Shown piece by piece: positions 25,154-28,414 of a stretch of DNA of 45,645 nt. The stretch covers positions 1 to 45,645 of the forward strand of contig NZ_CVSU01000045.1 in assembly GCF_001180205.1 (NCBI RefSeq), in the 5' to 3' direction. Positions within the stretch are counted from its first letter, which is position 1; each line of letters starts with the position of its first letter. The translations under genes were made by a program, and so were the position numbers. This DNA is from Candidatus Pelagibacter communis (lineage in GTDB: Bacteria > Pseudomonadota > Alphaproteobacteria > Pelagibacterales > Pelagibacteraceae). The notes beneath the pieces were generated by a model. That model ran no database searches and was not told where the DNA came from. It saw only the letters and a list, made by a program, of their open reading frames with translations.

Positions 25154-25933
25154 TTAAACATTAGCTGTTGCTAACATTTTTTTTATTTCAGCTATAGCTT
25201 TTGCTGGATTCAAGCCCTTAGGACATGCATTTGTACAATTTAATATTGTATGGCATCTATATAATTTTAATTCATCAGAAACTTTTTTTAATCTAGCTTT
25301 TCTCTCTTCATCTCTACTATCAATAATCCATCTATAGGCCTGTAGCAGAACTGCAGGACCTAAATATTTATCTCCATTCCACCAATAACTTGGGCAAGAT
25401 GTAGAACAACAGGCACACATAATGCATTCATAAGCACCATCAAGTTTTGCTCTATCTTCTTTAGACTGATAAATTTCTGTTGACTGTTTTGTTGAGTTAT
25501 TTTTTAACCAAGGTTCAATAGATTGATATTGTTTATATAAGCCATCTAAATCGCCGATCAAATCTCTTTTAACTTTTAAATGAGGTAGAGGATAAATATC
25601 GATGTCACCATCTATCTCTGCATGTGGAGTTGTACAAGCCAAGCCATTTTTTCCTCCCATATTCATAGCACAAGAGCCACAAACACCATGAGCACAAGAC
25701 CTTCTATAGGCCAATGTCGGATCAATTTCGTTTTTAATTTTATTTAGAATATCCAGTACCTTAGATGGGCAATTATCCATATCAACTTCGTATGTATCAA
25801 TTCTAGGATTTTCATCTGTCGATGGATCCCATCTATAAATATTTACTTTTCTTAAATTTTTAGATCCAGTTTTGTCTTTAAAATATTTGCCTTTTTTAAC
25901 CTCTGAATTTTTAGGTAAGCTTAGCTGAGCCAT
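25154..25933 (-). CDS. sdhB: Succinate dehydrogenase iron-sulfur subunit
   Basis: Electron-transfer subunit of complex II carrying [2Fe-2S], [4Fe-4S] and [3Fe-4S] clusters. The 259 residues show [10 protein letters not shown] plus a later Cys for the plant-type ferredoxin domain, then [12 protein letters not shown] and [17 protein letters not shown] for the C-terminal clusters. All cluster cysteines appear present. It shares one base with the sdhA stop. Confidence 0.97.
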
Positions 25934-27708
25934 TAATATACTCGCTCTTGTGGTGGAAAATATTGAACTTCGTTTGTTAAAGTTGATTTGTGTACTTCTC
26001 TGTAACTTATCTTTGTATTTTTCCCATCACACCAAGCAAGAGTATGTTGCATAAAGTTTTCGTCATCTCTTTTTGGATAGTCATCTCTCGCGTGAGCACC
26101 TCTGCTCTCTTTTCTATGATATGCAGACTCTACAGTAGTTACTGCTTGTCTTATTAAATTATCAAATTCTAATGTTTCAACTAAATCAGTATTAAATACT
26201 AAAGATCTATCTTTAACTGAAATTGAGTCCATGCCATCATAAGTTTTTTTAATCTCATCAACACCTTCTTTAAGATTTTTTTCTGTTCTAAAAACTGCAC
26301 ATTTCGACTGCATCGTTTTTTGCATTGAAAGTCTAAGTTCAGCAGTACTATTATTTCCTTGTGCATTTCTAAGTTTATCAAATCTATCTAAACATTTTTG
26401 TGTTTCTGACTCAGGAATTTCCTCATGAGGTGTTCCTGGCTTAACTAATTCAGCTGCTCTTTTTGCTGCTGCTCTTCCAAATACCACTAAATCAATTAAA
26501 GAATTAGAACCAAGTCTATTTGCTCCGTGAACAGAGACACATGCCGCTTCTCCTATAGCCATTAGACCTGGAACAGTTTTTTCTGAGCCATTTACAGTTA
26601 ATACTTCTGCTTTATAGTTTGTTGGAATGCCGCCCATATTATAATGAACTGTTGGTACAACAGGGATTGGTTCTTTAGTTACATCTACATTTGCAAATAA
26701 TCTTGCTGCATCGGTAATTCCAGGAAGCCTGCTTTCAATAATATCTTTATCTAAGTGACTTAGGTTCAAATGAACATGATCTTGATCTTTTCCAACACCT
26801 CTTCCCTCATTAATCTCTATAGACATTGATCTGCTAACAACATCTCTTGATGCTAAATCTTTTGCATTTGGAGCATACCTTTCCATAAATCTTTCACCTT
26901 TAGAATTTGTAAGATAACCCCCTTCTCCTCGCGCACCTTCTGTTATTAAGGTACCGTGGCCATAAATTCCTGTTGGGTGAAATTGAACAAACTCCATATC
27001 CTGAAGCGGCAATCCAGCTCTTAAAACCATTGCATTACCATCACCAGTGCAAGTGTGTGCTGATGTTGCTGAATAATAAACTTTTCCATAACCACCTGTA
27101 GCAATAATTACTGAATGTGCTCTAAATCTATGAATTGTTCCATCATTCAAATTCCAAGCAATTAGACCTTTGCATTCTCCATTCTTCATCAACAAATCTA
27201 ATGCAAAATATTCTATAAAAAATTCTGTATTATGCTTTAACGCTTGTCCATATAATGTGTGTAAAATAGCATGTCCTGTTCTATCGGCTGCTGCACAAGT
27301 TCTTTGAACTATTCCGTTCCCATAATTTTTCGTCATTCCACCAAATGGTCTTTGATAAATTTTTCCCTCTTCAGTTCTACTAAATGGAACTCCATATTTC
27401 TCCAATTCTAAAACTGCTTTAGGTGCTTCTTTACACAGATATTCAATACTATCTTGATCACCTAACCAATCTGCACCTTTGACAGTGTCATACATGTGCC
27501 ATCTCCAATCATCTTCCCCCATGTTTCCTAGTGCTGCTGATATTCCACCTTGTGCAGCTGATGTATGACTTCTGGTAGGAAATACTTTTGAGATACATGC
27601 TGTTTTTAAGCCAGCCTCACTAAGCCCTACTGCCGCTCTCAAACCTGATCCACCTGCACCAAGTACAACAACATCGTACTCATGGTCTATAATATTATAT
27701 GCTTTCAT
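25933..27708 (-). CDS. sdhA: Succinate dehydrogenase flavoprotein subunit
   Basis: Oxidises succinate to fumarate using covalent FAD. The 591 residues have the Rossmann motif [12 protein letters not shown] near 17-28, the flavinylated histidine in [10 protein letters not shown], the FHPTGIYG and [11 protein letters not shown] motifs, and the conserved arginine region [12 protein letters not shown]. Full length. The start overlaps the sdhD stop by four bases. Confidence 0.97.
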
Positions 27709-28034
27709 GTATTTAAGTTTAAAATTACAATTATTGTAATTACTGGGATTGTTATAGCAAAAAAATTTAGGACTTTGTTTGCGGCATTTTTGATTTTTTT
27801 ATCGTTAATATAGTCTTCAAAAACCTCACTTATAGTTAAAGCTGAAAAAAAATAAGCAATAACTAAAAATAACCCAATTAAGAATTTAGATGGTTGTGTT
27901 GTTAAAAAATTCACTATTTCCAAATAACTTTTATCATAAATATTCACTAAGTTTATAATAAACCAAAGCATTAAAGGTAATAAGATTGCAGAACTAATTT
28001 TTAAGAATAACCATTTTTTTGTTACTGGCAGCAT
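27705..28034 (-). CDS. sdhD: Succinate dehydrogenase membrane anchor SdhD, histidine-free
   Basis: 109-residue anchor with three predicted membrane helices (about 12-31, 50-70, 86-106). By ungapped alignment with E. coli SdhD, FEDYI (72-76) matches the quinone-site Asp82-Tyr83, while the haem ligand His71 falls on Phe63. The protein contains no histidine at all. It lies between sdhC (one-base overlap) and sdhA (four-base overlap), so identity rests on both context and the EDY motif. Together with the change in SdhC this suggests a haem-free complex II. Confidence 0.85.
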
Positions 28035-28414
28035 TATATTAATCCTCTGCCAATTATATAAATTAGGATAGTTAAAATAATCGAGCCAAAAATAACTAGC
28101 AAACCTGTAATTCTTGTTGTTTGTAATTCAAATCCATAGCCCAAATCCATAATTAAGTGTCTTATTTCACTTAACATTTGAAAACTAAATGACCAGGTTA
28201 TTCCAATTAAAATAAATTTACCTAAAAAAGTTTCTAAAAAAATTTTTATAATTTGATAATTACTTTCTCCTAGAAGCATTAATGCAAACCAAATACAAAT
28301 TAATGTAATTGCAAAAAAATTAATTATTCCTGTAATTCTATGTGAAATAGATACTAATGAAGAAATATGCCATTTATATATCTGTATGTGTGGTGATAAA
28401 GGTCTGTTTTCCAT
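28034..28414 (-). CDS. sdhC: Succinate dehydrogenase cytochrome b556 subunit SdhC, haem-ligand position altered
   Basis: 126-residue membrane anchor with three hydrophobic helices. SLVSISHRITGI (19-30) matches the E. coli segment containing quinone-site Ser27 and Arg31 (here Ser22 and Arg26). The second conserved region normally reads H-x-x-x-GIRH; here it is Q79-M-L-S-E-I-R-H86. The axial haem ligand (E. coli His84) is therefore Gln79, while the later, non-ligand His is kept. It is first of sdhCDAB, three bases after asd. Confidence 0.92.
   Translation of the reverse strand: MENRPLSPHIQIYKWHISSLVSISHRITGIINFFAITLICIWFALMLLGESNYQIIKIFLETFLGKFILIGITWSFSFQMLSEIRHLIMDLGYGFELQTTRITGLLVIFGSIILTILIYIIGRGLI

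What the first reader, a model, noticed from the sequence alone, without database searches (positions are those of the whole stretch)
27705..28414. Complex II anchors appear to have lost both haem b ligands but kept the quinone site
In E. coli, haem b is held by SdhC His84 and SdhD His71. Here the SdhC motif H-x-x-x-GIRH reads Q-M-L-S-E-I-R-H, placing Gln79 at the ligand position. SdhD contains no histidine at all, with Phe63 at the ligand position. The quinone-site residues (SdhC Ser22 and Arg26; SdhD Asp74-Tyr75) and all SdhB cluster cysteines remain. This predicts a haem-free succinate:quinone reductase derived from a type C enzyme, perhaps an iron- or haem-saving trait in the open ocean.
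Basis: partly seen in the sequence, partly recalled or inferred. Interest (0 to 1): 0.75.

Follow-up and report, generated by a model that had tools for sequence, protein, structure and literature searches.

The report
SAR11 complex II without haem ligands
The succinate-oxidising enzyme of this ocean bacterium has lost both residues that hold its haem, so it probably works without one, and related genomes show the loss happening step by step.

Summary
SdhC has Gln79 and SdhD has Phe63 where type C complex II has its two haem b ligands.

It is a trait of the window's SAR11 genus: Gln79 in 82 of 83 readable loci, Glu83 in 83 of 83, SdhD ligand His in 0 of 82. Genera g5-g7 keep both His (13 of 13); others are intermediate. 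By parsimony SdhD His was lost on the branch where SdhC Gly became Glu, and SdhC His became Gln later, on about three branches. Of 175 loci outside the order none lost both ligands and 6 lost one.

The anchors remain under purifying selection and the quinone-site residues are intact. Best reading: a haem-free derivative of type C, converging on yeast complex II, where cryo-EM shows no haem and a Gly→Glu replaces a propionate contact, here on the opposite subunit. Haem absence is inferred, not measured; the iron-saving motive is untested. My open-text searches listed no earlier report.

The parts
28034..28414 (-). sdhC, cytochrome b556-type anchor subunit, 126 aa
   Evidence: TIGR02970 above cut-off; AF2 model nearest E. 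coli SdhC
27705..28034 (-). sdhD, small anchor subunit, 109 aa, no histidine
   Evidence: TIGR02968 above cut-off; AF2 model nearest E. coli SdhD, Foldseek E only 0.02-0.04
28178..28180 (-). SdhC Gln79 codon, at the haem-ligand His column (E. coli His84)
28166..28168 (-). SdhC Glu83 codon, replaces the +4 Gly; proposed stand-in for a haem propionate
   Evidence: yeast parallel in PMC13066397
27846..27848 (-). SdhD Phe63 codon, at the haem-ligand His column (E. coli His71)
27834..27836 (-). SdhD Thr67 codon, replaces the +4 Gly
27999..28001 (-). SdhD Lys12 codon, column of E. coli SdhD Arg20 (propionate-binding)
   Evidence: alignment; Arg20 role in PMC3290573
27825..27827 (-). SdhD Glu70 codon, column of E. 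coli SdhD Gln78 (propionate-binding)
28337..28339 (-). SdhC Arg26 codon, quinone site and propionate partner (E. coli Arg31)
   Evidence: PMC3290573
28349..28351 (-). SdhC Ser22 codon, quinone site (E. coli Ser27, recalled)
28340..28342 (-). SdhC His25 codon (E. coli His30, which packs on the haem)
28157..28159 (-). SdhC His86 codon (E. coli His91, propionate network)
27810..27815 (-). SdhD Asp74-Tyr75 codons, quinone site
25933..27708 (-). sdhA, flavoprotein, 591 aa
   Evidence: TIGR01816 964.7 bits
25154..25933 (-). sdhB, iron-sulphur subunit, 259 aa, cluster cysteine motifs present

Best explanation
The window's sdhCDAB encodes a working succinate:ubiquinone reductase that descends from an ordinary haem-b-bearing type C enzyme but no longer holds haem. 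Electrons run from FAD through the three SdhB clusters straight to ubiquinone at the SdhB/C/D site; in E. coli the haem is not on that direct path. In place of the haem the two anchors are held together by side chains: an aromatic residue from SdhD (Phe63, Tyr in some relatives) and SdhC Gln79 fill the iron region, and at the cytoplasmic end SdhC Glu83, with SdhD Glu70, takes the place of the propionates, bridging to SdhD Lys12 and SdhC Arg26. The loss went in steps inside SAR11: SdhD His to Phe on the branch where SdhC Gly became Glu, then SdhC His to Gln. Shown here: the sequence changes, their spread, their order by parsimony, and continued selection. Inferred: absence of haem, and the bridges.
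For: Both ligand columns and both +4 Gly columns are changed. Near-fixation in the genus: Gln79 82 of 83 readable, Glu83 83 of 83, SdhD non-His 82 of 82. Residues fixed in g1 (at least 88%) but rare in bis-His SAR11 include SdhC 78, 79, 82, 83 and SdhD 11, 12, 64, 65, 67, 68, among 12 and 15 such positions. Intermediates fall in order on an SdhA tree and on a tree without the trait columns. Selection undiminished: median dN/dS SdhC 0.19 and SdhD 0.26 in g1 against 0.23 and 0.40 in bis-His SAR11. Ligand loss goes with loss of a +4 Gly in 90 of 90 rows against 5 of 181 bis-His rows; independent-pair sign test median p 0.03, range 0.03-0.13. Yeast complex II, without haem by cryo-EM and spectra, has a Gly to Glu change that binds the quinone-site Arg in place of a propionate (PMC13066397 passages). 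E. coli SdhD Arg20 and SdhC Arg31 are pseudo-twofold partners of the two propionates (PMC3290573 passage). A haem-free E. coli variant keeps significant activity and supports growth on succinate (PMC3290573 introduction).
Against: I had no haem measurement for any SAR11 complex II. SdhC His25 and His86 remain, and His25 could in principle ligate a haem. E. coli axial-ligand mutants are said to retain haem (reference title). In E. coli loss of haem lowers rates and the haem stabilises the isolated enzyme. The test for an acidic residue at the +4 place is not significant: median p 0.06, range 0.03-0.69. Lys12 also occurs in bis-His g3 (5 of 5) and Glu70 in all bis-His SAR11 loci readable, so neither is specific to haem loss. 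One g1 locus, L332, has His at the SdhC column. No SdhC-SdhD dimer could be modelled.
Confidence: 0.78

Rival explanations
1. Haem b is still bound, with altered ligation (for example SdhC His25, or five-coordinate or water-ligated), because the four-helix pocket alone can hold it.
For: His25 present in 82 of 84 readable g1 loci. E. coli axial-ligand mutants are said to retain haem (reference title); E. coli SdhC His84Met and SdhD His71Met structures are solved (titles; their haem content not seen).
Against: Both ligands and both +4 glycines are replaced, with a Glu where Gly is kept in 168 of 175 loci outside the order. His25 is Thr in 2 of 84 g1 loci and 1 of 23 named ones. Yeast, with one ligand His left, has no haem.
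Confidence: 0.13
2. The single-His forms (g8, part of g9, family f2 with SdhC Tyr or Asn) keep a haem, and only the double-loss lineages are haem-free, so haem itself was lost late and more than once.
For: Single-ligand states fill whole genera: g8 26 of 27, g2 9 of 9, g4 3 of 3. SdhC His to Gln falls on about three branches.
Against: g8 already carries Glu83 in 27 of 27. L332, nested in g1, has His again, as if the site no longer served as a ligand site (support 91). Yeast with one His is haem-free.
Confidence: 0.3
3. The haem loss is an iron- or haem-saving adaptation to the open ocean.
For: Among the SAR11 loci that keep both His is the named record HIMB114 (L064; its coastal origin is recalled).
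Against: Saves 1 of 10 Fe per complex (9 Fe sit in the three clusters listed). Ferrochelatase and a cytochrome b are kept. Few independent events; habitat not tested. Neutral loss of a dispensable cofactor with compensation fits equally well.
Confidence: 0.25
4. The anchors are decaying and the enzyme is becoming non-functional or soluble.
For: In g1 the anchors are far less conserved than SdhA (median identity 0.69 and 0.61 against 0.95).
Against: Bis-His SAR11 show the same (0.63 and 0.42 against 0.92); dN/dS well below 1; quinone-site residues kept; no stop inside any match listed.
Confidence: 0.02

Closest known systems
Saccharomyces cerevisiae complex II (haem-free type C; PMC13066397, passages seen)
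   Same: Type C ancestry, kept quinone site, ligand His lost on the small subunit, Gly to Glu in a ligand helix standing in for a haem propionate
   Different: Yeast keeps the Sdh3 His, which bonds to Sdh4 Tyr108, and its Glu is on Sdh4 (SdhD). The window has lost both His and carries the Glu on SdhC, the pseudo-symmetric place. Haem absence is measured in yeast, only predicted here
E. coli and mitochondrial type C SQR (1NEK, 1ZOY, 2FBW)
   Same: Anchor families, gene order sdhCDAB as in E. coli, quinone-site and cluster residues; nearest solved structures by sequence profile and by Foldseek
   Different: Bis-His haem b there; QxxxE and FxxxT in the window
Tetrahymena thermophila complex II (PMC10227065, passages seen)
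   Same: Two core anchor subunits, no haem b
   Different: Divergent complex of 15 subunits with cardiolipin at the haem place; its authors think it most likely type D
Type D E. coli fumarate reductase (FrdABCD)
   Same: Two anchor subunits, no haem (PMC10238741 passage)
   Different: The window's anchors match SdhC/SdhD models and no Frd anchor model at E 0.001

Membership tests
Type C succinate:quinone reductase | Two anchor subunits homologous to SdhC and SdhD | tested here: met
   TIGR02970 and TIGR02968 above cut-off. Foldseek: SdhC model to 7jz2_C E 8.6e-6, TM 0.78, rmsd 5.2; SdhD model to 2wdq_D E 0.02 and 1nek_D E 0.04, TM 0.78, rmsd 1.9 for the latter, no match at E 0.001
Type C succinate:quinone reductase | One haem b with one axial His from SdhC and one from SdhD | tested here: not met
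   Gln79 and Phe63 at the two ligand columns; haem itself not measured
Type C succinate:quinone reductase | Proximal quinone-site residues (SdhC Ser and Arg, SdhD Asp-Tyr) | tested here: met
   Ser22, Arg26, Asp74, Tyr75 present; in g1 83/83, 84/84, 82/82, 82/82 readable
Type C succinate:quinone reductase | SdhB with 2Fe-2S, 4Fe-4S and 3Fe-4S cysteine motifs | tested here: met
   Motifs read; Fer2_3 and Fer4-type families
Haem-free type C subgroup (as in yeast) | Type C fold and quinone site with haem absent in structure or spectrum | not testable with these tools
   Sequence predicts it; no spectrum or complex structure available here
Haem-free type C subgroup (as in yeast) | Gly to Glu at the +4 position of a ligand motif | tested here: met
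   SdhC Glu83, on the other subunit than in yeast
Type D (E. coli fumarate reductase) | FrdC/FrdD anchor families | tested here: not met
   No Frd anchor family among the hits at E 0.001 for either anchor

The most novel reading that the evidence does not exclude
The window's SAR11 genus runs the citric acid cycle on a haem-free complex II in which protein side chains have replaced the cofactor piece by piece. A Gly to Glu change takes over a haem propionate, as in yeast but on the opposite, pseudo-symmetric subunit. Scattered lineages outside SAR11 (L219, L222, L236/L237) show Glu at a +4 place with one ligand lost, so this would be a repeated evolutionary route from haem-bearing to haem-free complex II, with intermediates alive today in SAR11.
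Probability: 0.45. Interest if true: 0.75.

Novelty: new variant of a known kind. Interest (0 to 1): 0.62.

Why it matters
The role of the complex II haem is called highly ambiguous (PMC3290573 abstract): stabiliser, electron buffer or nothing essential. SAR11 offers natural enzymes with both His, one His and none within one order, so the question becomes directly testable. If the prediction holds, much succinate respiration by a very abundant group of marine bacteria (abundance recalled) uses a haem-free enzyme, which type A-F classifications and haem or iron budgets of ocean microbes do not account for.

Tried and rejected
Alternative ligands: no SdhD position holds a conserved His in the window's genus; in SdhC only His9, His16, His25 and His86 recur in nearly all rows. 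His86 is His in 153 of 175 loci outside the order, and its E. coli counterpart His91 belongs to the propionate network, so it is not a new ligand.

Second SDH copy with haem: the window's genome has only these two PF01127 hits (72% complete), and no genome listed shows more than two. Loss of haem synthesis as a cause: PF00762 passes its cut-off in 12 of 12 relatives, but in the window's own incomplete genome only a sub-threshold hit was found.

The window's SdhD alone found no PDB chain; the profile did. Single-chain models give no distance between Glu83 and Lys12. Literature searches listed no title about haem loss in SAR11 or in a bacterial type C complex II; only open-licence PMC papers are held, several lists were cut short, and I read passages of only a few, so this is weak evidence of novelty. 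PMC2888824 was not held.

Rows dropped before counts: L001, L002, L175-L177 (repeats of other loci), L348 and L349 (repeats of L144 and L154), L365 (wrong coordinates, 100 bases). L062 has no readable SdhC/SdhD, L174 no SdhC, L169 and L173 no SdhD; L119, L164 and L307 are cut in SdhD. L175-L177 were left by mistake among the 178 'others' (175 plus these 3). Of the 130 outside-order loci, 60 were picked mainly for low SdhD scores, so exceptions are over-sampled, and 30 were the top scorers. The trees were built before or without L308-L367.

Full report
What is there. The window's minus strand carries sdhC (28034-28414), sdhD (27705-28034), sdhA (25933-27708) and sdhB (25154-25933) in that order, all open. 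SdhC and SdhD pass the curated cut-offs of TIGR02970 and TIGR02968, SdhA that of TIGR01816. These two anchors are the only Sdh_cyt hits in the genome, which is 72% complete. SdhA is 99% identical to two records titled uncultured Pelagibacteraceae. AlphaFold2 models of the single chains (mean pLDDT 88.8 and 93.8) are nearest to E. coli SQR chains: SdhC to 7jz2_C (E 8.6e-6, TM 0.78, rmsd 5.2), SdhD to 2wdq_D and 1nek_D (E 0.02 and 0.04, TM 0.72 and 0.78; none at E 0.001).

The haem site. E. coli His84 (SdhC) and His71 (SdhD) ligate haem b (numbers recalled; His84Met and His71Met structures appear by title). The avian SdhC motif HTWNGIRH aligns with QMLSEIRH of the window. A 20-row SdhD profile aligns gap-free with 1nek_D, His71 on the column of Phe63 and Arg20 on that of Lys12. 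In addition the glycine at +4 of each ligand is changed: SdhC Glu83 and SdhD Thr67. Outside the order these positions are Gly in 168 of 175 loci (SdhC) and 165 of 174 readable (SdhD).

Spread within SAR11. Codes are those of the genome search; f1/g1 is the window's family and genus. Written as SdhC ligand and +4 / SdhD ligand and +4, (for a smaller set). g1, 85 loci: Q in 82 of 83 readable and H in 1 (L332), E in 83 of 83, SdhD F 73 and Y 9 of 82 readable. g8, 27 loci: H 26, Q 1 (L355), E 27, SdhD F 27. g9, 6 loci: Q 4, H 2, E 6, SdhD F 6. g10, 1 locus: HG/HS. g5, g6 and g7, 13 loci: HG/HG throughout. Family f2: g3 HG in SdhC 5 of 5 and in SdhD 4 of 4 readable; g2 YC/HG 9 of 9; g4 YS/HG 3 of 3; g13 ND/HG 1 of 1. 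The named loci agree: 23 g1-like all Q and E (SdhD F 15, Y 7, N 1); 4 g8-like HE/FT; 4 g9-like QE/FT; L063 and L064 (HIMB114) HG/HG; L065 YE/NG. Named and unnamed loci may overlap and are not added. The loci came mostly from the top of best-first hit lists, not at random.

Order of events. A tree of the SdhA N-terminus (117 rows, quick) and one of SdhA plus SdhC and SdhD with the trait columns removed (154 rows) agree in outline. In one search g5-g7 and L065 form one clade (100*). The rest form another (100*) in which g10 branches first with its SdhD Gly already changed; the remaining 138 rows (99*) all lack the SdhD His and all have Glu83. SdhC Gln then appears in g1 (99*), in part of g9 (99*) and in L355 within g8, and L332, inside g1 (support 91), has His. 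The backbone between g8, g9 and g1 has support 82-88 only. The fewest changes are 5 for SdhC His and 2 for SdhD His. Family f2 and L065 lost ligands separately. Support is SH-aLRT only.

Outside SAR11. The 45 loci fetched by SdhA similarity that fall outside SAR11 are all HG/HG. Of 130 further loci from the class and phylum (60 picked mainly for low SdhD scores), 119 are HG/HG, 1 is unreadable in SdhD (L307), and 10 differ: L212 HD/HS, L219 YG/HE, L222 YS/HE, L225 HG/YS, L234 HG/HQ, L236 and L237 YE/HE, L278 HC/YG, L300 and L303 HR/HE. None lost both ligands; 6 lost one. On 271 rows, all 90 with a ligand lost have also lost a +4 Gly, against 5 of 181 with both ligands; an acidic residue at a +4 place occurs in 81 of 90 against 3 of 181. 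Relatedness inflates such counts. The independent-pair test has 7 pairs on supported branches: median p 0.03 (range 0.03-0.13) for any non-Gly, 0.06 (range 0.03-0.69) for acidic. Suggestive, not conclusive.

Still selected. Median dN/dS over 60 random pairs per group, after dropping pairs with too few or saturated synonymous changes (15-49 kept in these cells): g1 SdhC 0.19, SdhD 0.26, SdhA 0.03; bis-His SAR11 0.23, 0.40, 0.04. Residues fixed in g1 (at least 88%) but rare in bis-His SAR11 number 12 in SdhC and 15 in SdhD; among them are SdhC 78, 79, 82, 83 and SdhD 11, 12, 64, 65, 67, 68 at the haem site, and others away from it. The change looks like remodelling, not decay.

How it most likely works. 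In E. coli the haem is not in the direct path from FAD to the quinone site, and a haem-free variant keeps significant activity, though at lower rates and with a less stable isolated enzyme (PMC3290573 introduction). Its distal propionate is held by SdhC His91, SdhB His207 and SdhD Arg20, the proximal one by SdhD Gln78 and SdhC Arg31, and Arg20 and Arg31 are pseudo-twofold partners (passage). Yeast complex II has no haem; its Sdh4 Glu112, which replaces a glycine, binds Arg97 of Sdh3 in place of a propionate, and Sdh3 His156 bonds to Sdh4 Tyr108 (passages). The window has the Gly to Glu on SdhC, so by symmetry its partner should be SdhD Lys12, with SdhD Glu70 near SdhC Arg26 as the other bridge. 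Gln79 and the SdhD aromatic would fill the middle. These contacts are inference: no dimer model was possible. Lys12 occurs also in bis-His g3 and Glu70 in all readable bis-His SAR11 loci, so they may be older than the haem loss.

What remains open. Haem absence is unmeasured. The single-His genera could still bind haem. The iron-saving idea is not supported by anything I tested: one Fe of ten is saved, a cytochrome b and ferrochelatase remain, and habitat was not analysed.

Known or new. Haem-free type C-like complex II is known in yeast, and that paper cites ciliate and Perkinsus enzymes without the haem; I saw passages of a ciliate paper. A 2023 review describes class C as having one b haem (passages). 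Searches of open PMC text listed no title about haem loss in SAR11 or in a bacterial type C enzyme; of the papers that mention SAR11 I saw passages of three, of the others only the listing. I therefore file it as a new variant of a known kind.

Noticed in passing
L300, L303 (same class, family code f24): SdhC and SdhD keep both ligand His, but the +4 glycines are Arg and Glu, a possible ion pair at the haem edge.
   Followed up: no
L236, L237 (family code f112, genomes of 1.4-1.5 Mb): SdhC Tyr with Glu at +4, SdhD His with Glu at +4: a possible separate route to altered or lost haem.
   Followed up: partly
L219, L222, L225, L278: A single ligand His replaced by Tyr in one subunit in scattered lineages outside SAR11.
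   Followed up: partly
L015, L155-L159 and others (Pelagibacterales family f2): In g2, g4 and g13 the SdhC ligand is Tyr or Asn while SdhD keeps HxxxG, the reverse of the window's family.
   Followed up: partly
window SdhC residue 16 (codon 28367-28369): His16, six residues before the quinone-site Ser22, is in 82 of 83 readable g1 loci, 5 of 6 g9, the one g10 and 3 of 27 g8, but Gln in all 13 of g5-g7.
   Followed up: partly
G000:C71:9292-9462 (L369); G012 and G066: A sub-threshold ferrochelatase-like stretch in a frame of 316 aa; G012 and G066 also have a full ferrochelatase elsewhere.
   Followed up: no
Pelagibacterales genomes: 12 of 151 genomes at least 90% complete and at most 5% contaminated show no Sdh_cyt match; gaps or real absence not resolved.
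   Followed up: no
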